Assembly: GCF_003668565.1 (NCBI RefSeq)
Contig: NZ_RCWJ01000001.1
Location: 930,001-994,000 of the forward strand
Reading direction: 5' to 3'
Source: Mycetocola zhadangensis
GTDB taxonomy: Bacteria > Actinomycetota > Actinomycetes > Actinomycetales > Microbacteriaceae
Length of the DNA stretch: 64,000 nt
Made by a program: the position numbers and the translations under genes. Positions 1,833 through 36,150 of this stretch are shown here, in pieces. Numbering within the stretch: the first letter of the stretch is position 1; each line of letters opens with the position of its first letter. A model generated the notes under the pieces. It worked only from the letters and a program-made list of their open reading frames with translations. It was not told the DNA's origin and made no database searches.

Positions 1833-3554
1833 TTGGCAAAGTCGAAGTCGACGCCGATCCGTAGAGCGAGTCGCTCACTGGTCTGGCTTGGCGTAATCAC
1901 CCTGGCACTTTTCGGCATTCTTGCCGGAGGAGTGATTTGGGGCAACGCCACCTGGGCCCCCAAGCTCGCCCTTGACCTCGAGGGCGGAACCCAGATCATT
2001 CTGCAGCCCAATGTCGAGAGCGGTGAGTCGGTCTCGACCGAACAGCTCAACCAGGCCGTAGGGATCATCCGCCAGCGCGTGGACGCCTCAGGTGTTTCAG
2101 AGGCCGAAGTCAACACCGAGGGCAGCAACGTTGTTGTCACTATTCCCGGTGAGGCAGACGAAGAGACTCGCAACCGCATTGAGGCGTCGGCGAAGCTCGA
2201 GTTCCGTCCCGTTCTGGTCGCCAGCCAACCAGCGAACACATTCGTCGGTGAGGACGGCAACGAGACTCCATACCCGACCCCGGATCCGGCGCTCCCTGAC
2301 ACTCCGGCAACGGAACCAACCGACGCGAGCGACCTCGCCTGGGTCACAGAAAAGCTTCAGGCTGAATTCCAGGCGTTCGATTGCGCAGCGCCTGTCGAGG
2401 CCGGCACGGTTCAGCCGGCTGACAAGCCGGTCATCGCGTGTGAGGTCGACGGCAGCGTCAAGTATGTGCTCGGACCTGTCGAGGTTGAGGGCTCCAAGAT
2501 CTCCGATGCCACCAACGGCATGCAGACCACCCAGACCGGTGCAACGACCGGCGCCTGGGTGGTCAACCTCGAGTTCGATGGTGAAGGCACTAAGCAGTTC
2601 GCCGCAGTAACCCAGCGCCTCAACGCGCTTCAGAGCCCGCAGAACCAGTTCGCGATCGTGCTGGACAACCAGGTCATCTCAGCACCGCAAACCAACGCCG
2701 TGATTGCCGATGGCAATGCAGAGATTTCCGGAAACTTCACTCAGGAGTCGTCGAAGTCACTCGCCGACCAGTTGAAGTACGGCGCACTGCCGATCAGCTT
2801 CCAGGTGCAGAGCTCAGATCAGATCTCCGCGACACTCGGGTCTGCGCAGTTGCAGATCGGAATCATCGCAGGAATCATTGGCCTCATCCTCGTCGCCATC
2901 TACACCCTGTTCCAGTACCGGTTGCTTGGGCTCGTCACCATCGCATCGCTCGTGGTCGCTGGCGTCCTGACCTACCTGGTCATTGCGATCCTGTCCTGGC
3001 GCAACGGCTACCGCCTGTCCTTGGCCGGCGTCGCAGGTCTGATCGTCGCGATCGGCTTCACGGCCGACTCCTTCATCGTCTACTTCGAGCGAATACGAGA
3101 CGAACTCCGTAACGGACGCGGTCTCGAATCTGCGGTTGAAGCAGGCTGGAAGCGTGCTAAACGCACAATCTACGCGTCAAAGGGCGTGAACCTCCTCGCC
3201 GCGGTCGTGCTCTACGCCGTTGCGGTAGGAAACGTCAAGGGATTCGCGTTCACGCTCGGTGTCACAACGATCATCGACGTCCTTGTCGTGCTGCTCTTCA
3301 CACACCCGGCGCTTCAGGTGCTCGCGCAGACGCGGTTCTTCTCCAGCGGCCACCCGCTGTCCGGGCTTGACCCCAATGCCCTCGGTGCCGTCTACCGTGG
3401 GCGTGCTCAGTTCCGCGCGCCCCAGGCTGCCGTCGCAGGCAAAACCACCAAGTCCAGCCGTGAGGCAGCCAAACGGCAAACGATCGCAGAACGCAAGCAG
3501 GCTGAACTGGTCGCCGCTGGCGCCGGCAAGAAGTCTGAGGAGAAGAAGTCCTAA
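1833..3554 (+). CDS. secD: Protein translocase subunit SecD
   Basis: SecD (573 aa) works with SecF as a proton-driven RND-type motor that pulls exported proteins through SecYEG from the outside. The first membrane helix is at about residues 16-34, the signature LALDLEGGTQI at 45-55, a large periplasmic region follows, and five further helices occupy roughly residues 345-500, including the SLAGVAGLIVAIGFTADSFIVYFER segment with its conserved Asp. The C-terminal 60 residues are basic and cytosolic. The start is an unusual TTG; it gives the expected short N terminus before the helix, and no ATG or GTG fits better. The stop overlaps the secF start by one base. Confidence 0.95.
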   Translation: MAKSKSTPIRRASRSLVWLGVITLALFGILAGGVIWGNATWAPKLALDLEGGTQIILQPNVESGESVSTEQLNQAVGIIRQRVDASGVSEAEVNTEGSNVVVTIPGEADEETRNRIEASAKLEFRPVLVASQPANTFVGEDGNETPYPTPDPALPDTPATEPTDASDLAWVTEKLQAEFQAFDCAAPVEAGTVQPADKPVIACEVDGSVKYVLGPVEVEGSKISDATNGMQTTQTGATTGAWVVNLEFDGEGTKQFAAVTQRLNALQSPQNQFAIVLDNQVISAPQTNAVIADGNAEISGNFTQESSKSLADQLKYGALPISFQVQSSDQISATLGSAQLQIGIIAGIIGLILVAIYTLFQYRLLGLVTIASLVVAGVLTYLVIAILSWRNGYRLSLAGVAGLIVAIGFTADSFIVYFERIRDELRNGRGLESAVEAGWKRAKRTIYASKGVNLLAAVVLYAVAVGNVKGFAFTLGVTTIIDVLVVLLFTHPALQVLAQTRFFSSGHPLSGLDPNALGAVYRGRAQFRAPQAAVAGKTTKSSREAAKRQTIAERKQAELVAAGAGKKSEEKKS

Positions 3555-24703: not shown

Positions 24704-24897
24704 GTGTGGTGTAACTCTGCAGGCAGGCAAGTCCTTCCCACACGGGCGGATGGCGGGCGGCTTTGCACGCGAGAGCGATGTCGGTGGCTGGTGATTCACT
24801 TAACACATGAACACCTCGACAAGTGCTACCGGCACCGCCACATCGGGCGGTCGAAGGCGGAGCCGGCAGTGTCAGTGGTGGGTGGTGTACTGACCTT

Positions 24898-26391
24898 ATG
24901 AACACCTCGGTTGCTGTTCTTCCCGTCACAGACGACGCGGAGATCGTGGCGCTGGGTGATGTTCTTCATCATCTGTCCGAGGTTCTCGAAACTCTCGATC
25001 TGGATCACCTCGATCGACTCACCTCCGACACCGTCCTGTCGGTGGTTGCCCAGGCTGCTGCGCTCGGGAGAGGTGTCGAGACGGTTCTCGTCGCTGCGAG
25101 CCAGGAGGTCGCTGTCCGCAGCGATGCCGTGCTCGGCGGAGAAGGACTCGCGGCGCGCATGAATTACCCGCGTGCATCGTTTCTCATCGAGCAAGTGGCC
25201 GGTGTCTCGTCGGCGACAGCCAGCCGACTCATTCGCGTCGGATCCCGAACGAACACACGGGTAACCGTTGGGCAAACGCTCCCTCCGCTGTTCCCACATG
25301 TCGCGGAGGCGTTCCGCGCCGGGATGATCAGTGTCGAGACCGCAGACGTCATCACTCGAGAGCTCACCCTGGCCGCCCCTCGGGCGGACGTGGCACACCT
25401 CGAGGTGGCCGAGCAGACGCTGGTTGGTCAAGCCGCTGGTACGACAGACCAGCATGGCCTCCCGCTGCCGACTGACCTTGTCGCGATGCAGGCCCGCGCA
25501 TGGCGTGATCGGTTGGACGAAAAGGGGATTGAGCCACGAGCGGAGAAGGCGTTCAACAATCGCGACTTCTGGATGAGTCGAACTGCAAAGGACGGGCTCA
25601 TCAGGTTCGGCGGGCACGTCACCATCGATGTCGGCGCGAAGCTGCACGCGTTGATGGACGCCATCCTCAGCTCGCGCACGCAACCCCGATTCGTGGACGA
25701 AAATGCTGACGACACCATCGACTTTCCAGTGGCAGAGATGCTCGGCGCGAATGAACCCGTCGACGACCCTGTCGGCTTAGCAGGAACGGGCCAGGGTGGG
25801 CTGGTTCGCACCGAATCCGGCCGCGCCGGAAAGGTCCGCGACACTCGCAGCGCAGGGCAGCAGCGTGCAGACGTATTCGCCGCGATGATCGACGCCCTCG
25901 CCCGTTCGGCTGAGGTTCCGACCGTTTCGGGAGCAGCACCGACCGTCGTAGTCAGGGTGAGCGCCGATGTTCTCGAGCGGCGGTCCGGCACAGCAGACGT
26001 CGTCGGCATAAGCGACCCGCTCCCGTACTCCGCCGTTCAGCAGATACTCTGCGACAGCGACGTCGTCCCTGCATACCTCGACCCGGGTGGCGGGGTCGTT
26101 GCACTCGGGACGACCAAGAGGGCGTTTCACCGCGGCCAGCGCATGGCAATGATTGCGAGGGACGGACCTACGTGCGCTATGCCGGGTTGTCAAATACCCG
26201 CGACCGGCTGCGAGGGACACCACGTGGTGCGACACAGCGAGGGCGGACCCACCTCGGTGGACAACGGTGTGCTGCTGTGTTGGTTCCACCACCATATGGT
26301 CGATGCCGATATCTTCACCATCACCATGGAGAATGGCACACCGGTCTTCACGATCCCGGATTGGCTGCTTCGGAAGCCGTACTTCCGTTGA
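24898..26391 (+). CDS. DUF222 domain protein with C-terminal HNH endonuclease
   Basis: The 497-aa protein has the DUF222 (13E12-like) helical region in its N-terminal two thirds and an HNH nuclease at the end: CAMPGCQIPATGCEGHHVV with two metal-binding cysteines, then DNGVLLCWFHHHMVD, around residues 423-468. Such proteins are numerous in actinobacteria, often in variable regions, and their biological role is unsettled. The ATG at 24898 is preceded by a G-rich, poor ribosome site; the frame is open further upstream. It is the last gene of the block between nusB and pyrR, and no transposase or integrase accompanies it. Confidence 0.92.
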   Translation: MNTSVAVLPVTDDAEIVALGDVLHHLSEVLETLDLDHLDRLTSDTVLSVVAQAAALGRGVETVLVAASQEVAVRSDAVLGGEGLAARMNYPRASFLIEQVAGVSSATASRLIRVGSRTNTRVTVGQTLPPLFPHVAEAFRAGMISVETADVITRELTLAAPRADVAHLEVAEQTLVGQAAGTTDQHGLPLPTDLVAMQARAWRDRLDEKGIEPRAEKAFNNRDFWMSRTAKDGLIRFGGHVTIDVGAKLHALMDAILSSRTQPRFVDENADDTIDFPVAEMLGANEPVDDPVGLAGTGQGGLVRTESGRAGKVRDTRSAGQQRADVFAAMIDALARSAEVPTVSGAAPTVVVRVSADVLERRSGTADVVGISDPLPYSAVQQILCDSDVVPAYLDPGGGVVALGTTKRAFHRGQRMAMIARDGPTCAMPGCQIPATGCEGHHVVRHSEGGPTSVDNGVLLCWFHHHMVDADIFTITMENGTPVFTIPDWLLRKPYFR

Positions 26392-26530
26392 AACTGGGTC
26401 CCGAGCCAAGCTCCACAACCGCCGACCGCGAGAAGCGCGTCCATGACCACGACTGCTTGACGGCGTAACCTCGCAAAAATGTCCACTCACCGGCTGATAG
26501 AGTCGACCTCATCATTGACAACCTTTAACA

Positions 26531-26545
26531 CCGTCCGAGAGACGG
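26531..26545 (+). promoter_or_regulatory. candidate PyrR-binding hairpin at the pyrR ribosome site
   Basis: CCGTC and GACGG flank CGAGA, three bases before the AGGGAG ribosome site of pyrR. The loop region contains CCGAGA, which fits the CNGNGA core of known PyrR-binding loops. In mycobacteria PyrR represses translation from such a leader site (established for the relatives, inferred here). A candidate promoter further up is ATGACC (26443-26448), 17 bases, TAACCT (26466-26471), which would place the hairpin in the leader. The TTGACA at 26515 has no matching -10. Confidence 0.5.
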
Positions 26546-26559
26546 AGAAGGGAGTCGGC

Positions 26560-27099
26560 ATGAGTGCGCGCGTCGTACTTCAGCAGGCTGACATCGCCCG
26601 AGCGTTGACCCGGATTTCCCACGAGATCCTTGAGTCCAATCGAGGCGCAGACGACCTCGTTCTCCTGGGCATTCCAACCCGTGGCGTCATCCTCGCCGAT
26701 CGCATCGCTGCCCTCATCTCGGGTATCGCTGGCACGGCGATCGAAGCCGGATCACTCGACGTCACCATGTATCGCGACGACCTCGCGAAACACCCGACAC
26801 GAACCCCGGCGCCGACACACATTCCCGCGTCAGGCATCGACGGCAAGACCGTCGTACTGATCGATGATGTGCTCTACTCGGGCCGGACGATCCGCGCGGC
26901 CCTGGACGCCATCGGTGACATTGGTCGCCCACGAGCCGTGCGCCTCGCAACGCTCGTCGATCGGGGGCACCGAGAGTTGCCGATCCGCCCCGACTTTGTC
27001 GGCAAAAACCTGCCGAGCGCCCAAACCGAGCGGATCAACGTGCACCTGGTCGAGCTCGACGGAGCCGACCTCGTCTCTATTGATGAGGTGCGGGCCTGA
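26560..27099 (+). CDS. pyrR: Bifunctional pyr operon regulator / uracil phosphoribosyltransferase PyrR
   Basis: PyrR (179 aa) senses UMP/UTP and controls pyr mRNA; it also has uracil phosphoribosyltransferase activity. The PRPP-binding motif [19 protein letters not shown] is near residues 97-115, ILLGIPTRG-type [15 protein letters not shown] near 34-48 and MYRDDLAK near 70 are family features. The ATG at 26560 is chosen for its AGGGAG ribosome site; an ATG 27 codons earlier would cover the leader hairpin. The stop overlaps the pyrB ATG, the start of a tightly packed pyr operon. Confidence 0.96.
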
Positions 27100-28049
27100 T
27101 GCGTCACCTGCTTTCCACGCGAGACCTCAGCCGCGACGCAGCGATCGAACTTCTCGATGTCGCCGAAGACATGGCTGACACCCAGCTGCGCGAGGTCAAA
27201 AAACTCCCAACGCTGCGCGGCAAAACCGTCGTCAATCTCTTCTTCGAAGACTCCACCCGCACCCGAATCTCATTCGAGGCCGCGGCGAAACGCTTGAGTG
27301 CGGATGTCATCAACTTCAGCGCAAAGGGATCAAGCGTCTCGAAGGGCGAAAGTCTCAAGGACACCGCCCAGACCCTCCAGGCGATGGGCGCGGACGCCGT
27401 CGTGATTCGTCACCCCGCTTCCGGGGCGCCGCAGACACTCGCAACGAGCGGCTGGATCGACGCCGGTATCCTCAACGCCGGCGACGGCACCCACGAGCAC
27501 CCCACCCAGGCCTTGCTCGATGCGTACACAATCCGCAAGCGGGTGCACGGTTCAGCGTCACGAGGGAAGGACCTCGACGGACTTCGGGTGACTCTCGTCG
27601 GCGACGTGCTCCACTCGCGGGTCGCACGAAGCAACGTCTGGCTGCTCACGACACTCGGCGCGACCGTGTCCCTGGTTTCACCACCAACCCTCGTCCCCGT
27701 CAACACCACTGGCTGGCCCGTCGCCATCGGCTACGACCTTGACGAGGCGATCGAGGGGAAGCCGGATGTGATCATGATGCTTCGCATTCAGGCTGAACGG
27801 ATGCGTGACGCGTTTTTCCCCAACAGCCGGGAGTATTCAAAGCGCTGGGGCCTCGACGATGGACGACTGGGCAAGCTTCAGGCGACTACGATTGTCATGC
27901 ACCCCGGACCGATGAACCGGGGTCTGGAAATCTCCGCTGCGGCAGCCGATTCACCCCAATCCACGGTTCGTGAACAAGTGACCAACGGAGTTTCCGTGCG
28001 GATGGCCGCACTTTACCTGCTGCTGTCTGGCGATCGGGAGGACGCATAA
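27099..28049 (+). CDS. pyrB: Aspartate carbamoyltransferase catalytic chain
   Basis: PyrB (316 aa) makes carbamoyl aspartate from carbamoyl phosphate and aspartate, the committed step of pyrimidine synthesis. The carbamoyl phosphate motif [10 protein letters not shown] is at residues 51-60, the loop [16 protein letters not shown] follows near 77-92 and [12 protein letters not shown] near 134-145. No pyrI regulatory chain is present, so control is likely through PyrR. It overlaps pyrR by one base and is followed three bases later by pyrC. Confidence 0.97.
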
Positions 28050-28051
28050 TC

Positions 28052-29398
28052 ATGACGACACACACCTATGTCCTTCGCCGGGCGACCCTCGCAGACGGCA
28101 GCACCGCCGACATCCGTATTGCCAACGGAATCATCGCTGAACTCGGCGGCTCGCTCTCTGCAAACGGCGCGTCGGTCATCGACGCAGACGGGTTGCTCGC
28201 GCTTCCCGGCCTCGTCGACCTGCACACGCACCTCCGTGAACCGGGCTACGAGCAAAGCGAGACCGTGCTCACCGGCACCCAGGCCGCAGCGGCCGGCGGA
28301 TTCTCCGCCGTGTTCGCCATGGCGAACACCTCACCTGTCGCAGACACCGCTGGTGTCGTCGAACAGGAACTCGCACTCGGCCAGGAAGCCGGGTACGCCA
28401 CCGTGCAGCCCATCGGTGCCGTCACCGTCGGTCTCGCTGGCGAACAACTCGCCGAACTCGGCGCAATGGCGACATCGCGGGCACGGGTGCGTGTGTTTTC
28501 CGATGACGGCTCCTGCGTTTCAGACCCGCTGCTCATGCGTCGCGCCCTCGAATACGTCAAGTCGTTCGACGGTGTCATCGCGCAGCACGCCCAGGACCCC
28601 CGACTCACGGTCGGCGCCCAAATGAACGAGGGCGCTGTGTCGAGTGAGCTCGGCCTGCAGGGCTGGCCGGCCGTCGCTGAAGAGTCGATCATCGCTCGCG
28701 ATGTGCTGCTCGCCGAACACGTCGGTTCACGGCTGCATGTGTGCCACGTTTCGACGGCGGGAAGTGTGGACGTGATCCGCTGGGCCAAGGCTCGCGGCAT
28801 CGCTGTCACGGCCGAGGTCACGCCGCACCACCTGATGCTCACCGAAGAACTGGTTCGCAGTTACGACGCGAGGTACAAGGTGAACCCGCCGCTTCGGCGA
28901 CAGGAAGACGTGCTCGCGCTCCGCGAAGCGCTCGCTGACGGAACCATCGACATTGTCGCCACCGACCACGCACCGCATCCCACCGAACACAAGGACTGCG
29001 AGTGGGACGCGGCGGCCAACGGGATGGTCGGCCTTGAGTCGGCTCTCAGCGTTGTGCAGGCATCAGTGATCGACAACGGCCTGTTGACCTGGACGGACCT
29101 CGCTCGCGTGTTTTCGGCGACTCCGGCTCGAATCGGCCGCCTCTCGGGCCACGGGCAAGGCATCGTGCAGGGCGCTCCGGCACAGGTGCTGCTCTACGAC
29201 CCATCCGCCGCACGAGTCTTCGGCACCGAGCAGCTCGCGGGCAAGGGGATGAATTCGCCATATCTCGACCTCACGCTGCCCGGCCGGGTAGTTGCCACCT
29301 TCCACGACGGCTATGCCACCGTGCTCGACGGTACGTTGCGCCCGGCAGACGAAGTTGCGCAGGCCGCGCTCAGCAGAAGGGCAGGCTCGCATGTCTGA
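28052..29398 (+). CDS. pyrC: Dihydroorotase
   Basis: PyrC (448 aa) closes carbamoyl aspartate to dihydroorotate. The amidohydrolase fold shows the metal site DLHTHLREPGYE near residues 56-67, the second histidine regions HAQDP and VCHVSTAGSVD, and DHAPHPTEHKDCEWD with the catalytic Asp near 307. It is the longer class I form, typical of Gram-positive pyr operons where it pairs with PyrB. Its last eight bases overlap the following membrane protein gene. Confidence 0.96.
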   Translation: MTTHTYVLRRATLADGSTADIRIANGIIAELGGSLSANGASVIDADGLLALPGLVDLHTHLREPGYEQSETVLTGTQAAAAGGFSAVFAMANTSPVADTAGVVEQELALGQEAGYATVQPIGAVTVGLAGEQLAELGAMATSRARVRVFSDDGSCVSDPLLMRRALEYVKSFDGVIAQHAQDPRLTVGAQMNEGAVSSELGLQGWPAVAEESIIARDVLLAEHVGSRLHVCHVSTAGSVDVIRWAKARGIAVTAEVTPHHLMLTEELVRSYDARYKVNPPLRRQEDVLALREALADGTIDIVATDHAPHPTEHKDCEWDAAANGMVGLESALSVVQASVIDNGLLTWTDLARVFSATPARIGRLSGHGQGIVQGAPAQVLLYDPSAARVFGTEQLAGKGMNSPYLDLTLPGRVVATFHDGYATVLDGTLRPADEVAQAALSRRAGSHV

Positions 29399-29936
29399 TC
29401 GCCTGATTCCCGCCATTCTCGTTCTAGGGTTGCTCGCGCTTCTCCTGACCGGTATGTGGCTCGCCTGGCGCGCACGGGTGAAGCGAGACAGCGGAGTGTC
29501 GGCGGGGGAGCCGCTTCCAGACAGCGGCATCCACCCCGTGGTGACCACCGACGTCCTCTATGTAGCGACAACTCACGCCGGCCAGCCCCTCGAACGCCTC
29601 GCGATCCGTGGGCTCGCGTTCCGCGCCCGTGCCGAACTCATCGTCGCGACGGAGGGTGTAGTGCTCTCCGTTCCCGGACAGGAGCCGATCTTTCTGCCGG
29701 CCGCCAGCATCCGCTCGTCTCGTCCTGCAACGTGGACCATCGATCGCGTTGTCGAATCGGATGGCCTGATTGCGATCACCTGGCGAAGCGGTGAGACGGA
29801 TGCCGACAGTTACGTTCGCGTGATCGATCCGGCTCAACACACTTCAGTTCTCGACGCTCTCGCGTCACTTTCGTCGACCGGCCCGGATTCGTCCCCGCCG
29901 GCACCCACCACTTCCACCGAGAGGAAGAAATCATGA
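29391..29936 (+). CDS. Membrane protein of the pyr operon (Rv1382-like)
   Basis: This 181-aa protein has one N-terminal membrane helix (residues 5-24, [20 protein letters not shown]) followed by a soluble beta-rich region of about 130 residues that looks like a PH-type fold, and a Ser/Pro-rich tail. A protein of this kind stands between pyrC and carA in many actinobacteria, including Mycobacterium (Rv1382). Its function is unknown; the tight overlap with pyrC (eight bases) and carA (four bases) implies co-translation with the pathway enzymes. I chose the ATG at 29391 directly before the helix. Confidence 0.9.
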
Positions 29937-31096
29937 GCACATTCGGCTCAGCAGAACCCGCGGTCCTCGTTCTGGAAGACGGCACCCGCTATGTCGGACG
30001 CGCATACGGCGCAACCGGCAAGACACTCGGTGAGGTCGTCTTCTCGACCGGAATGACCGGATACCAGGAGACGCTAACCGACCCGTCGTACGCGGGGCAG
30101 ATCGTTCTCATGACGGCGCCCCACATCGGAAACACAGGAATGAACGCCGAAGACATGGAGTCGTCGCGCGTCTGGGTTGCCGGATACGTCGTGCGCGACC
30201 CCTCCCGCATGGTGTCGAATTTCCGCTCGGAGAACAGCCTCGACAGTGAGTTGACCCGCGACGGCATCGTCGGCATCAGCGGCATCGACACCCGCGCCGT
30301 CACTCGGCGGATTCGCTCGGGCGGTGCCATGCGAGCGGGCATCTTCTCCGGCGAGGACTTCCGCCTCTCGGAGGGTGACCAGCTTGACCAGGTTCGCCAG
30401 GGACCTGAGATGACGGGCCGCAACCTCTCCGGTGAAGTTTCAACCATCGACCCGTACGAGGTGCCTGCTCAGGGTGAGCGCATCGGCCGTGTCGCCGTGC
30501 TCGACCTCGGCATCAAGAAGTCGACGGTCACCTACCTCTCGGAACGCGGCTTCGACGTGCTCGTTCTGCCGCAGAATGTGACGGCTGACCACGTGTTGAG
30601 CCTCAAGCCGGATGCTCTCTTTTTCTCCAACGGCCCCGGTGACCCCGCAGCATCTGACGCGCACGTCACACTGCTGCGCGAGGTACTGCGCGAGAACGTG
30701 CCGTACTTTGGAATCTGCTTCGGCAACCAGCTGCTTGGCCGCGCGCTCGGGTTCGGTACATACAAGCTGCCGTTCGGCCACCGTGGCATCAACCAGCCCG
30801 TGCTCGACAAGACGACAGGCCGGGTCGAGATCACCTCGCAGAACCACGGCTTCGCTGTTGACCTGCCGATCGAGGGCGACCACCAGTCTCCCGAGGGCTT
30901 CGGTCGTGTCACCGTCAGCCACTACAGCCTCAACGACCAGGTCGTCGAGGGCCTGTCCTGCCTCGACATCCCGGCGTTCAGCGTTCAGTACCACCCGGAA
31001 TCCGCTGCTGGTCCGCACGACGCCAACCACCTCTTCGATCGCTTCCGTGACCTCGTGATCGCGAACAACCAGACTTCAGCAGGAGACGCAAACTAA
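29933..31096 (+). CDS. carA: Carbamoyl-phosphate synthase small subunit
   Basis: CarA (387 aa) is the glutaminase that supplies ammonia to CarB. The N-terminal domain holds [22 protein letters not shown] and the class I amidotransferase domain has the nucleophile in [15 protein letters not shown] near residue 263 and the His/Glu pair in [11 protein letters not shown] near 355. The ATG overlaps the preceding stop (ATGA) and the stop overlaps the carB start by one base. The product serves both pyrimidine and arginine synthesis. Confidence 0.97.
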
Positions 31097-34000
31097 TGCC
31101 AAAACGCGACGACATTTCCAGCGTCCTCGTCATCGGCTCGGGCCCGATCGTCATCGGGCAGGCCGTTGAATTCGACTACTCGGGAACCCAGGCATGCCGG
31201 GTGCTCCGCGAGGAAGGCGTTCGCGTCATCCTCGTGAACTCCAACCCGGCCACCATCATGACCGACCCTGACTTCGCCGATGCAACGTACATCGAACCGA
31301 TCACATGGGAAGTCATCGAGACGATCATTGCGAAGGAAAAGCCCGACGCGATCCTGCCGACGCTCGGCGGCCAGACGGCTCTTAACGCGGCCATCCAGCT
31401 GCACGAGCACGGCATCCTCGAGAAGTACAACGTCGAACTCATCGGCGCGAACTTCGAGGCCATCAACAAGGGCGAAGACCGTCAGATCTTCAAGCAGCTC
31501 GTCCTCGACGCCGGAGCCGACGTCGCCCGTTCGCACATCGCCCACACGGTCGAAGAGGCCGTCGGTTTCGCTGAGGACCTCGGCTACCCGCTCGTCGTCC
31601 GCCCCTCGTTCACCATGGGTGGCCTTGGCTCCGGCTTCGCCTACAACGAGGTAGAACTGCGCCGCATCGTCGGCGACGGCCTGCACCAGAGCCCAACCAC
31701 CGAGGTGCTCCTTGAGGAGTCCATCCTCGGTTGGAAGGAATACGAACTCGAGCTGATGCGAGACACAGCCGACAACACGGTTGTCGTCTGTTCGATCGAG
31801 AACGTCGACCCGGTTGGCGTTCACACGGGTGACTCGATCACCGTCGCTCCGGCCCTCACCCTGACCGACCGCGAGTATCAGAAGCTCCGCGACATCGGAA
31901 TCGACATCATCCGCGCCGTTGGCGTCGACACCGGCGGTTGCAACATTCAGTTCGCCATCGACCCGGCCGACGGACGCATCATCGTCATCGAAATGAACCC
32001 GCGTGTGTCGCGGTCGAGCGCGCTCGCTTCCAAGGCCACGGGCTTCCCGATTGCGAAGATCGCCGCCAAGCTCGCAATCGGATACCGCCTCGACGAAATC
32101 CCGAACGACATCACCAAGGTCACTCCGGCCAGCTTCGAACCGACTCTCGATTACGTCGTCGTCAAGGTTCCGCGGTTCGCGTTTGAGAAGTTCCCGGCAG
32201 CGGATGCCACGTTGACAACGACGATGAAATCCGTCGGTGAGGCGATGGCCATCGGCCGCAACTTCTCCTCAGCGCTGCAGAAGGCACTCCGGTCACTCGA
32301 GAAGCGCGGATCCAGCTTTTCCTGGGGCGACGAGTCCCGTTCGGTTGAGGAGCTGCTCGAAATCGCGAAGGTGCCGACCGACGGTCGAATCGTCGTTGTC
32401 CAGCAGGCACTTCGACTCGGTGCGACTCCGGAGCAGGTCTTCGAAGCTACCAAAATTGATCCGTGGTTCCTCGACCAGATCGTGCTCATCAACGAGGTCG
32501 CCGACTACATCCGTAACGCAGCGGTCCTCGACACCGAGGTACTCGTCACCGCCAAGAACCATGGCTTCTCTGACGTGCAGATCGGTCAGCTGCGCGGGTT
32601 CGGTGAGGCGCAGGTCCGCGAGGTCCGTCACATCCTCGACGTCCGTCCAGTGTTCAAGACTGTGGACACCTGCGCGGGGGAGTTCCCAGCGCTGACGCCG
32701 TACCACTACTCGAGCTACGACGCCGAAACCGAGGTTGCACCGTCTGACCGCCGCAAGGTCGTCATCCTGGGGTCAGGCCCGAACCGCATCGGCCAGGGAG
32801 TCGAATTCGACTACTCCTGCGTCCACGCCTCGTTCGCGCTGAGCGACGCCGGTTTCGAAACAATCATGATCAACTGCAACCCCGAGACCGTGTCGACGGA
32901 CTATGACACGAGCGACAGGCTGTACTTCGAACCGTTGACACTCGAAGACGTGCTCGAGGTCATCCACGCGGAGAGCCAGTCGGGTGAACTCGTCGGTGTC
33001 GTCGTTCAGCTCGGTGGGCAGACAGCGCTCGGCCTCGCAACCGGGCTCAAAGCCGCTGGCGTTCCCATCCTCGGAACAACCCCCGAGGCGATCGACCTGG
33101 CCGAAGAGCGCGGCGCTTTCTCACGCATTCTGACCGAAGCCGGGCTGCTCGCTCCGAAGAACGGCACAGCGACCGAGATCACCGGTGCCATCACCATCGC
33201 CGAAGACATCGGCTACCCCGTGCTCGTCCGCCCGAGCTTCGTGCTCGGCGGCCGTGGAATGGAAATCGTCTACGACACAGCTTCACTCGAGGACTATTTC
33301 GTCCGGATGGCCGGTCAGGGCATCATCGACGCGCAGCACCCGCTGCTCGTCGACCGGTTCCTTGACGACGCCATCGAGATCGATGTCGACGCTCTCTACG
33401 ACGGAACCGAGTTGTACATCGGCGGCGTCATGGAGCACATTGAGGAGGCCGGGATCCACTCCGGCGACTCGAGCTGCACGCTCCCACCGATCTCCCTCGG
33501 GCGTGCCCAGATCGACCGTGTCCGCGAAGCCACCCTCGCCATCGCGCAGGGAATCGGCGTTCAGGGCCTGATCAACGTTCAGTTCGCCATCGGTGCCGGC
33601 ATTCTCTACGTCCTCGAGGCGAACCCACGCGCGTCCCGCACGGTTCCGTTCGTATCGAAGGCGCTCGGCATCCCGCTCGCCAAGGCAGCGTCGCTCGTGA
33701 TGACAGGCACTACTATCGCCGAGCTGAAGGAATCCGGGCTCCTCCCACCCGTCGATGGCTCGCGGATCCCCATCGACTCGCCCGTCTCGGTGAAGGAAGC
33801 CGTTCTGCCGTTCAAGCGGTTCCGCACAGCAGACGGTCGCATCGTCGACTCCATCCTCGGACCAGAGATGCGCTCAACCGGTGAGGTGATGGGAATCGAC
33901 AAAGACTTCCCGCGCGCCTTTGCCAAGAGCCAGACCGCCGCATACGGGGGAATGCCACTCTCCGGAACCGTATTCGTCTCGGTTTCCGACCGCGACAAGC

Positions 34001-34389
34001 GCTCGATCGTGCTTCCGATCCTCCGGTTCCAGGAACTCGGCTACGACATTCTGGCCACGGAGGGCACCGCCGAGATCCTCAACCGCAACGGCATCTCGGC
34101 ACGCACTGTCCGGAAATACAGCGAGGGCGACGAGTCCACGCTCGGCGAACCGTCGATCGTTGAGCTCATCAACCGTCACGAAGTCGACATCGTCATCAAC
34201 ACGCCGTCGGGTCGGAGTGGCCGAGCCGACGGTTACGAGATCCGTGCTGCAGCGGTTGCTGAAGACAAGCCGCTCTTCACAACCATCGCCGAGCTGACCG
34301 CCGCTGTGGCATCGATCGAGGCGGTTCGCAACGGGTTCGACGTTCGCTCGCTGCAGGAATACGCCAAGGACAGGGCGTTGCGGGCATGA
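31096..34389 (+). CDS. carB: Carbamoyl-phosphate synthase large subunit
   Basis: CarB (1097 aa) makes carbamoyl phosphate from bicarbonate, ammonia and two ATP. It shows the duplicated ATP-grasp halves: [26 protein letters not shown] at the N terminus and [26 protein letters not shown] starting near residue 552, with matching [16 protein letters not shown] and [16 protein letters not shown] motifs. The last 150 residues form the MGS-like allosteric domain. Length is normal. Its stop overlaps the pyrF ATG. Confidence 0.98.
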
Positions 34390-35228
34390 CAGCGACGTTC
34401 GGGGAGCGACTCGAGCGAGTTTTTTCGGACTACGGGCGCCTGTGTGTGGGAATCGACCCCCACGCCTGGCTCCTGTCTGAGTGGGGCCTTCCCGACACCG
34501 CAGCCGGCACTCGCGAGTTCGGTCTCCGTGTGCTCGATGCCGTCGAAGGCAACGCCGGCATCGTGAAACCCCAGGTGGCGTTCTTCGAACGGTTCGGATC
34601 CGCCGGTTTTGCTGCGCTCGAGGATATCCTCGCCTCCGCACGATCCCGAGGCGTTTTTGTGATCGCCGACGGCAAGCGAGGCGACCTCGGAACGAGTGTC
34701 GAGGCATACGGGCAGGCCTGGCTCACACCGGGATCTCCGCTCGAGGCGGACGCTCTCACCGTGAGCGCATACCAGGGCGTCGGCTCCCTTGCCGCGCCAA
34801 GTGCACTGGCCGAGTCCACCGGCAAGGGACTTTTCGTCCTTGCGGCGACATCGAACCCTGAAGGATCCGAACTTCAACAGGCACGGATGCTGTCGGGCAC
34901 GACGGTTGCGCGAGCGATCGTCGACGAGGTCAACACCTGGAACGCCGCGCACAGCACAACGGGCCTCGGCTCGATCGGTGTCGTCATCGGCGCAACGTTG
35001 AACCTCGCCGATTTCGATCTCGACGTCGCTCCAACTCCAGCGCCTCCGGTACTCGCACCAGGCTTTGGCCACCAGGGAGCCTCTGTGCCGGCGATGCGTT
35101 CCATTTACGGTGCACTGACCAGCGGTGTCATCGTTTCCGAATCACGAAGCGTGCTCGGCGCTGGCCCGAACGGGATCCACGCCGCAGTACGCACTCGAGC
35201 AGAAGATGTGAGGCAGGCCAGTGCCTGA
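34386..35228 (+). CDS. pyrF: Orotidine 5'-phosphate decarboxylase (PyrF, type 2)
   Basis: PyrF (280 aa) makes UMP from OMP. It belongs to the longer, type 2 group common in actinobacteria: [18 protein letters not shown] near residues 19-36, [14 protein letters not shown] near 60-73 and the catalytic [12 protein letters not shown] near 95-106. The C terminus holds [11 protein letters not shown]. It follows carB with a four-base overlap and overlaps the mIHF-Gmk gene by eight bases. pyrD and pyrE are not in the window. Confidence 0.96.
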
Positions 35229-36150
35229 GCAAACAGTCCGCACCCCACCAGAAGTCGATCGGGTTGCGGCATCCCGCGCCGCTGTCGAGGCCAGGCGCAA
35301 GCGCGCAGAGGTGAAGAACAACATCGCAACTGGGACCGTTTCTGCCCTCACGGTGCTCGACGACGCCTTCGCGGACCCTGAGGGTGTCGCTGGACGAATG
35401 CGAGCCACAGATTTCCTGCTGAGCGTTCCCGCCATCGGGCGAACGAAGCTCACCCGAATTCTTGAGGACCTCAAAATCTCGCCATCCAAACGGCTCGGTG
35501 GGCTTGGACCCAACCAGCGCCTGCGCATCCGTGACTTCATCGCTGACCGCGAGTCGAAGAACCGCCAGCACAAGCGGTCACGGCTCATTGTTCTCGCCGG
35601 GCCGACCGCCGTCGGCAAGGGAACCGTTGCAACCCACATCCGGGAGAATTACCCCGACGTGCTGCTCTCAGTTTCCGCAACGACCCGCAGCCCGCGTCCT
35701 GGCGAAGTCGAAGGCATCAACTACTTCTTCGTCAACGACGAAGAGTTCGACAGGCTCATCGAAAACGGCGAACTTCTCGAGCACGCGACGGTTCACAACG
35801 CCTCTCGCTACGGAACACCACGCGGCCCCATCGACGAAGCGTTGAACAGGGGAGACAGCGTCCTGCTCGAGATTGACATCCAGGGTGCGCGACAGGTTCG
35901 CGAGGCCATGCCGGAGGCTACCCTCGTCTTCCTCCTCCCGCCGAGCTGGGACGAACTCGTCCGACGCCTCGTCGGCCGGGGCACCGAAGGCGCTGAAGAA
36001 CGGGAGCGGCGACTCGAGACCGCGCGGCACGAATTGGCTGCTCAGGACGAGTTTGACTACCGCGTCGTGAACGGCACAGTGGCTGATGCCGCCCAAGAGG
36101 TCGTAGACTTGATCCAGACTCGCGGCGCACGACCCCGGCGCACAGTGTAA
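35221..36150 (+). CDS. gmk: mIHF domain fused to guanylate kinase
   Basis: The 309-aa product has two parts. Residues 10-110 match actinobacterial integration host factor mIHF, a nucleoid protein: [47 protein letters not shown]. Residues 121-305 are a full guanylate kinase (GMP to GDP): P-loop [10 protein letters not shown] near 126-135, [22 protein letters not shown] near 149-170 and [12 protein letters not shown]. In Mycobacterium these are two adjacent genes; here the frame is continuous, with no internal stop or ribosome site that I can see. The GTG start overlaps pyrF. The fusion appears to be a Microbacteriaceae trait. Confidence 0.95.

What the first reader, a model, noticed from the sequence alone, without database searches (positions are those of the whole stretch)
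26531..26545. Possible PyrR translational-repression hairpin at the pyrR ribosome site
A CCGTC/GACGG stem holding a CCGAGA (CNGNGA-type) loop lies three bases before the AGGGAG of pyrR. PyrR is known to bind such loops, and in mycobacteria it represses translation of pyrR itself. Since pyrR to gmk form one overlapping run, this single element could control the entire pyr operon and the mIHF-Gmk fusion.
Basis: partly seen in the sequence, partly recalled or inferred. Interest (0 to 1): 0.55.

Follow-up and report, generated by a model that had tools for sequence, protein, structure and literature searches.

The report
PyrR hairpin covering pyrR ribosome site
Just before the pyrR gene lies a small RNA hairpin, kept across most of the actinobacteria examined, that probably lets the PyrR protein shut off translation of the pyrimidine operon when pyrimidines are plentiful; here its binding loop has lost one base.

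Summary
Alone it is no more than chance: 25 such stem-loops, this one included, occur in the window. Conservation makes it convincing. All 81 leaders compared carry it, 77 with the hexaloop and 4 with a pentaloop. A covariance model matches 222 of 248 genomes of the order and 192 of 296 of the phylum, with compensatory changes in both stems. The element is larger than reported: a lower stem (26522-26526 with 26547-26551) covers most of the Shine-Dalgarno. A conserved -10 box (81 of 81) puts the transcription start near 26510 (inferred), and no terminator was found. Most likely PyrR, probably with UMP, holds the hairpin closed and represses translation of pyrR and, by coupling, of the overlapping run to gmk. 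Such control is published for Mycobacterium smegmatis. Modest novelties: a loop one base short in several genera; a second copy at carB in 14 of 14 two-hit genomes of one family; tandem hairpins in three genomes. Binding and UMP response are untested.

The parts
26498..26503 (+). -10 box TAGAGT (extended -10 form TGATAGAGT); inferred transcription start about 26509-26511
   Evidence: TANNNT starts 27-40 bases before the core in 81 of 81 leaders; 200 shuffles: mean 3.25, maximum 10. A TTG-type -35 box in only 2 of 81. The start position is inferred from usual -10 spacing, not mapped.
26517..26519 (+). outer stem, 5' arm GAC (pairs with GTC 26554-26556)
   Evidence: Columns 7-49, 8-48, 9-47 of A1: 8-48 is A-U in 39, G-C in 21, G-U in 4, unpaired in 7 of 71 leaders; 9-47 unpaired in 3; 7-49 unpaired in 26 of 71
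26522..26526 (+). lower stem, 5' arm CCTTT: anti-Shine-Dalgarno
   Evidence: Its two C and first two T columns stay paired in all 71 leaders; the third T (column 16) in 66 of 71; predicted pairing with 26547-26551
26527..26530 (+). internal loop AACA between the stems (with A26546 opposite); place of the purine-rich bulge of Bacillus PyrR binding loops
   Evidence: Conserved TAA; the (weak) RF00515 alignment puts UAA at the same place
26531..26535 (+). upper stem, 5' arm CCGTC
   Evidence: Arm pairs CCGTC/GGCGG 69, CCGTC/GACGG 10, GCGTC/GGCGC 2 of 81 leaders
26536..26540 (+). terminal loop CGAGA: PyrR-type recognition loop with the N base of CNGNGA missing
   Evidence: Hexaloop CNGNGA in 77 and pentaloop CGNGA in 4 of 81 leaders; 5 of 5 congeners CAGAGA
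26541..26545 (+). upper stem, 3' arm GACGG
   Evidence: Paired with 26531-26535
26547..26551 (+). lower stem, 3' arm GAAGG, overlapping the Shine-Dalgarno
   Evidence: Unpaired probability 0.13 to 0.00 in the 26510-26565 fold
26549..26554 (+). Shine-Dalgarno AGGGAG of pyrR; 26549-26551 and 26554 paired, 26552-26553 unpaired in the predicted fold
   Evidence: Sequence; unpaired probabilities; relatives read AAGGAGG, AAGGGAG or AAGGGGG here
26554..26556 (+). outer stem, 3' arm GTC
26560..27099 (+). pyrR (179 aa)
   Evidence: Matches solved PyrR proteins: 1non 4.2e-53, 1w30 8.7e-53, 1a3c 2e-52; best hit an ancestral PyrR, 4p81, 4.4e-56; Pfam Pribosyltran
27099..36150 (+). rest of the run under the same leader: pyrB, pyrC, bPH-domain ORF, carA, carB, pyrF, H2TH (mIHF-like)-Gmk fusion
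   Evidence: Gaps between successive genes -1, +2, -8, -4, -1, -4, -8 bases, with start codons chosen by me for the bPH ORF (29391) and the fusion (35221); Pfam of pyrB, pyrC, bPH ORF, carA, pyrF and the fusion; carB named from its sequence, not run through Pfam

Best explanation
The leader of the pyr operon folds into a two-tier hairpin: an upper stem with a PyrR-type loop, and a lower stem whose 3' strand is part of the Shine-Dalgarno of pyrR. When pyrimidine nucleotides are high, PyrR (with UMP, by analogy) binds the loop, the internal bulge and the top of the stem, and locks the hairpin closed, so ribosomes cannot start pyrR. Because the following genes overlap or abut, their translation falls as well. 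When UMP is low, PyrR lets go and the hairpin opens. Shown here: sequence, conservation, compensatory changes, overlap with the Shine-Dalgarno, no terminator found by scan, association with pyrR. Inferred: transcription start, PyrR binding, the UMP signal, coupling to downstream genes. In this genome the loop is one base short; recurrence in other genera suggests that binding survives.
For: Element in 81 of 81 leaders, 346 of 398 family genomes by exact pattern (the reversed control pattern in 5) and 43 of the 44 pyrR leaders found in 48 of the 52 pattern-negative genomes. Compensatory changes: 42 double-change cells against 7.0 shuffled, and at most 24 when slid, on A3; 27 against 11.7, at most 15 when slid, on A1. 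Lower stem covers much of the SD. -10 box just upstream in 81 of 81; no terminator found. PyrR co-occurrence in the order: 19 of 20 with the element, 2 of 20 without, Fisher 6e-8 (related genomes, so not independent). 33 of 33 measured elements end 7-132 bases before the aligned start of pyrR. In one family 14 of 14 two-hit genomes carry one copy at pyrR and one at the start of carB. RF00515 aligns with the same CCUUU-UAA-stem-AAGG layout, though at a chance-level score. PyrR of the window resembles solved PyrR proteins.
Against: No binding, expression or start-site data. The window loop departs from the CNGNGA consensus. RF00515 score 16.3 (E 4.7), far below its cut-off of 54, and 0 of 10 relatives reach it. 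On A1 two of the five covariation measures do not stand out: 3 pairs with double changes against 2.0 shuffled (29 of 500 shuffles as high), and 11 pair types against 10.6 (284 of 500); pair 11-45 is unpaired in 38 of 71 leaders, the window among them. A3 was fitted to the model and its sources were picked by hand. In the phylum 16 of 20 sampled genomes without a model hit still have pyrR, so the link is not universal, or the model misses deep variants. G448 has a marginal hit (E 0.0067) but no PyrR. At E 0.01 per genome a few of the 222 and 192 matches are expected by chance. The hairpin alone is common by chance in this GC-rich window.
Confidence: 0.9

Rival explanations
1. The window copy is a decayed PyrR site: the hairpin family is real, but the one-base loop deletion in this strain has weakened or abolished PyrR binding, so the operon here is partly unregulated.
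For: The deletion is absent from 5 of 5 congeners, so it is probably recent; the PyrR protein also carries a residue (A60) that differs from all five congeners (P60).
Against: Pentaloops recur: exact pattern in 11 of 398 genomes in 4 genera, 7 of them in genus g11 (10 sampled), plus related forms in L138 and L215. On a PyrR tree the label needs five changes, two of them forced by well-supported branches. The rest of the window element is intact and scores 62 bits.
Confidence: 0.2
2. The leader works by transcription attenuation, as in Bacillus, with the hairpin as anti-antiterminator.
For: Same layout as the RF00515 binding loop.
Against: No terminator-like site in 26380-26700; only about 50 bases separate the inferred start of transcription from the ATG; the 3' arm of the lower stem is part of the SD in the 71 aligned leaders.
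Confidence: 0.04
3. The conserved stretch is a DNA operator for a repressor protein, not an RNA hairpin.
For: It contains an inverted repeat near the promoter.
Against: It lies downstream of the -10 box; changes are compensatory and include G-U pairs, which DNA binding would not explain; the position is locked to the SD.
Confidence: 0.03
4. Plain SD-masking structure that sets a low basal translation rate or senses temperature, without PyrR.
For: Most SD bases are paired in the predicted fold even without protein.
Against: Loop letters C-N-G-N-G-A are conserved although unpaired; the element goes with pyrR across the order; it recurs at carB, another pyr gene.
Confidence: 0.05

Closest known systems
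PyrR-dependent translational repression of the pyr operon in Mycobacterium smegmatis (Fields and Switzer 2007; only the title seen, in reference lists; paper not held, content recalled)
   Same: Actinobacterial pyrR leader, PyrR-type hairpin next to the pyrR ribosome site, no attenuator (recalled)
   Different: The window has a five-base loop; no binding test here
PyrR binding loops of the Bacillus subtilis pyr operon / Rfam RF00515 (passages of PMC7430163)
   Same: CCUUU...AAGG lower stem, UAA bulge, short upper stem and G-N-G-A loop letters aligned by cmscan
   Different: No terminator found; score 16.3 against a cut-off of 54; lower stem doubles as SD; loop one base short

Membership tests
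Rfam RF00515 PyrR binding site | score at or above the curated gathering score (54 bits) | tested here: not met
   16.3 bits, E 4.7; 0 of 10 relatives at gathering. The model runs to 115 positions, well beyond the hairpin; so not filed as an RF00515 member
PyrR binding loop (ARUCCNGNGAGGYU consensus; the reviewed form ARUCCAGAGAGGYU seen, the N version recalled) | CNGNGA hexaloop | tested here: not met
   Window CGAGA; met in 77 of 81 leaders compared
PyrR binding loop (ARUCCNGNGAGGYU consensus; the reviewed form ARUCCAGAGAGGYU seen, the N version recalled) | short upper stem, internal bulge and lower stem | tested here: met
   Folds and pair counts; the window bulge AACA is three purines of four
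PyrR binding loop (ARUCCNGNGAGGYU consensus; the reviewed form ARUCCAGAGAGGYU seen, the N version recalled) | binds PyrR with UMP | not testable with these tools
   Needs a binding assay
Actinobacterial pyrR-leader hairpin (model R1, defined here) | R1 match directly upstream of pyrR | tested here: met
   62 bits, E 2.2e-15, the only match in the genome at E up to 10; the window is one of the 71 sequences in the model, so it matches by construction
PyrR translational repression (M. smegmatis type) | hairpin masks the pyrR SD, transcription starts upstream, no terminator | tested here: met
   transcription start inferred only, masking predicted only
PyrR translational repression (M. smegmatis type) | repression by uracil that depends on pyrR | not testable with these tools
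   Needs a reporter and a pyrR deletion
PyrR protein | sequence relation to solved PyrR proteins | tested here: met
   1a3c 2e-52, 1non 4.2e-53, 1w30 8.7e-53

The most novel reading that the evidence does not exclude
PyrR in these actinobacteria reads a reduced loop in which the variable base of CNGNGA is dispensable, so a five-base loop is a working alternative that arose more than once. The hairpin behaves as a movable module: in one family carB carries its own copy, and in three genomes it is doubled into two hairpins inside one SD-masking stem, possibly for sharper, cooperative repression.
Probability: 0.5. Interest if true: 0.45.

Novelty: new variant of a known kind. Interest (0 to 1): 0.35.

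Why it matters
It gives a compact, testable model for pyrimidine control across the window's phylum (Actinomycetota, as judged from the named relatives): one roughly 40-base element that carries both the PyrR-type loop and the ribosome site. The natural loop deletion, the carB copy and the tandem form are ready-made variants for learning which loop bases PyrR reads; the work on the Bacillus loop is cited in a review (passages of PMC7430163). The covariance model finds the element where the current Rfam model did not reach its cut-off (window and 10 relatives).

Tried and rejected
Rfam at gathering threshold on the window and on ten relatives: nothing. Sigma-70 promoter scan of 26380-26700: 0 hits; the -10 box was found by comparison instead. 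A first -10 count gave 71 of 81 because the search interval stopped short of the nearer sites; one search replaces it. Hairpin as attenuator: rejected for lack of a terminator. The idea that pattern-negative genera had lost the element was rejected: the pattern was too strict (CTTGAA, CTTAAA, changed upper stems). The idea that the whole genus g49 has tandem hairpins was rejected: two of its nine sampled genomes do (L157, L158). Weak second R1 hit in G468 (E 0.005): no pyr protein matched its locus. Paper searches: PyrR with pentaloop 0 papers, PyrR with Microbacteriaceae 0 papers; broader searches, of which only the listings were seen unless named elsewhere. These cover only the open-licence library, and none looked for tandem sites by name.

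Rows dropped or chosen: the 80 relatives are the best 80 of 430. 81 leaders became 71 in A1 because identical trimmed leaders were removed. In one search, 48 of the 52 pattern-negative genomes were searched; G099, G101, G177 and G196 were left out. Of the 17 genomes of family f20, 14 had two hits and were followed; G489, G578 and G600 had one. Searches tested 40 genomes each, chosen by hand: 20 of the 26 without a match in the order, 20 of the 104 in the phylum, and 20 with a match in each. Distances cover 33 of the 39 genomes with both hit and pyrR; G403, G407, G408, G412, G418 and G432 were not entered (in G418 the match and pyrR overlap by three bases). The tree holds 15 pentaloop rows, but L039 and L197 have the same leader and contig length and are probably one genome; one row (L149) got no loop call, and 53 of 100 inner branches are weak.

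Full report
What is there. The window lies in a genome of 3.32 Mb, by its relatives one of Microbacteriaceae; the nearest named record found is Mycetocola manganoxydans, PyrR 91% identical. pyrR starts at 26560. Upstream, CCGTC (26531-26535) pairs with GACGG (26541-26545) around the loop CGAGA. Taken alone the stem-loop is unremarkable: scanning the window for a five-pair stem around CNGNGA or CGNGA gave 12 on the + strand, this one included, and 13 on the - strand, against 5.55 per strand in mononucleotide shuffles, and folding z-scores range from -2.93 to -0.04 depending on the stretch.

Conservation. A scan of named genomes with PyrR gave the best 80 of 430 relatives. With the window that makes 81 leaders, and all 81 have the element: loops CTGTGA 29, CAGAGA 16, CCGTGA 11, CGGAGA 9, CAGTGA 7, CCGAGA 3, CGGTGA 2, CGAGA 3, CGGGA 1. 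An exact pattern matched 346 of 398 genomes of the family; the reversed control pattern matched in 5. Of the 52 without a match I searched 48: 44 have pyrR, and the model found the element in 29 of 30 and 14 of 14 of their leaders, three of them only weakly (20-24 bits). The one left, L146, has a double hairpin. The model R1, built from 71 distinct leaders, matched 222 of 248 genomes of the order and 192 of 296 of the phylum at E 0.01 per genome, a level at which a few chance matches are expected, and only one place in the window's genome.

Structure. On the 71 leaders 92.1% of cells pair, with 27 double-change cells against 11.7 in shuffles and at most 15 when partners are slid; two other measures there do not stand out (3 pairs with double changes against 2.0; 11 pair types against 10.6), and the pairs 7-49 and 11-45 are unpaired in 26 and 38 of 71. 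On 90 further matches, most of them from outside the family or from its divergent genera (87 distinct, the window's own copy among them), 93.1% pair, eight pairs show changes on both sides, and there are 42 double-change cells against 7.0 shuffled and 24 at most when slid. That alignment was fitted to the model, so it leans towards it, and I picked its 90 sources from the loci at hand. The upper stem changes as C-G to U-A or G-C, and U-G to U-A, C-G or G-U. The lower stem CCUUU/GAAGG is almost fixed, as expected if its 3' strand is part of the Shine-Dalgarno. In the fold of 26510-26565 the bases 26547-26551 and 26554 are nearly always paired, while 26552 and 26553 are free.

Promoter. All 81 leaders carry TANNNT starting 27-40 bases before the core; shuffles of the same upstream stretches give a mean of 3.25 and a maximum of 10. 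In the window it is TAGAGT at 26498-26503, so transcription should start near 26510 (inferred). The whole hairpin then lies in a leader of about 50 bases, and no terminator-like site was found in 26380-26700. That leaves translation as the step most likely controlled.

Link to PyrR. In the order, 19 of 20 genomes with the element have pyrR; 18 of 20 without it lack pyrR (Fisher 6e-8). The exceptions are G448 (marginal hit, no pyrR), G399 (partial pyrR match) and G560. Fourteen of the 20 genomes without the element belong to one family (f4), so the rows are not independent. In the phylum the contrast is weak: 20 of 20 with, 16 of 20 without (p 0.11). The 33 measured elements all end 7-132 bases before the aligned start of pyrR. 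In family f20, 14 of the 17 genomes seen had two hits, and in 14 of 14 one copy stands before pyrR and one at the start of carB. In G476, where I looked at 11 kb, carB is separated from carA by a long open frame on the other strand (L222 1311-5690), and the model match ends three bases before the carB start. This is natural evidence that the element belongs at the ribosome site of pyr genes that may head a transcript.

The short loop. The five congeners in the collection have CAGAGA; the window lost one base. The exact pentaloop pattern occurs in 11 of 398 family genomes, in four genera: the window (g1), 7 in g11, 2 in g33, 1 in g32. Of the ten g11 genomes in that sample, 7 have the pentaloop, 2 the hexaloop and one (G348, L138) a related form with A at the closing position, as does L215. 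On a PyrR tree of 105 rows the 15 pentaloop rows, of which two are probably one genome, need five changes; two are forced by well-supported branches. Recurrence and retention in one genus suggest that it works; it is not proof.

Operon. The run pyrR-pyrB-pyrC-bPH ORF-carA-carB-pyrF-gmk has gaps of -1, +2, -8, -4, -1, -4 and -8 bases, so translational coupling is plausible. The last gene is a fusion of an H2TH (mIHF-like) domain with guanylate kinase. Internal promoters were not tested.

Literature. B. [quoted passage not shown] Repression of translation by PyrR in M. smegmatis is the title of Fields and Switzer 2007, seen only in reference lists (passages of PMC13328217 and PMC6455119); the paper is not held. 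A comparative survey of RNA motifs includes the PyrR site (RF00515) among its motifs, and Corynebacteriaceae and Mycobacteriaceae among its groups (passages of PMC3766115). Passages of PMC2753549, PMC10942264 and PMC2965389 added nothing decisive; the first shows that a promoter upstream of mycobacterial pyrR has been aligned and tested in E. coli. The kind of control is therefore known; the variants described here did not turn up in the searches named in Tried and rejected.

Noticed in passing
L146 about 1439-1498 (G087); L157 about 1435-1498 (G383); L158 about 2033-2104, minus strand (G331): Two PyrR-type hairpins side by side inside one SD-masking stem, in three genomes of two genera; for L157 the predicted fold prefers another pairing.
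   Followed up: partly
L222 1104-1155 and 9804-9856 (G476), and loci L225-L252: A second copy of the hairpin at the start of carB in 14 of 14 two-hit genomes of one family of the order.
   Followed up: yes
window 35221-36150: H2TH (mIHF-like) domain fused to guanylate kinase as the last gene of the pyr run.
   Followed up: no
window 29391-29936: Bacterial PH-domain-like ORF (bPH_11) between pyrC and carA, overlapping both.
   Followed up: no
window 24823-26391: DUF222-HNH gene directly upstream of the pyr promoter, a type often repeated in actinobacterial genomes (recalled).
   Followed up: no
window 26560-27099: PyrR residue A60 differs from P60 in all five congeners, in the same lineage that lost the loop base; possibly unrelated.
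   Followed up: no
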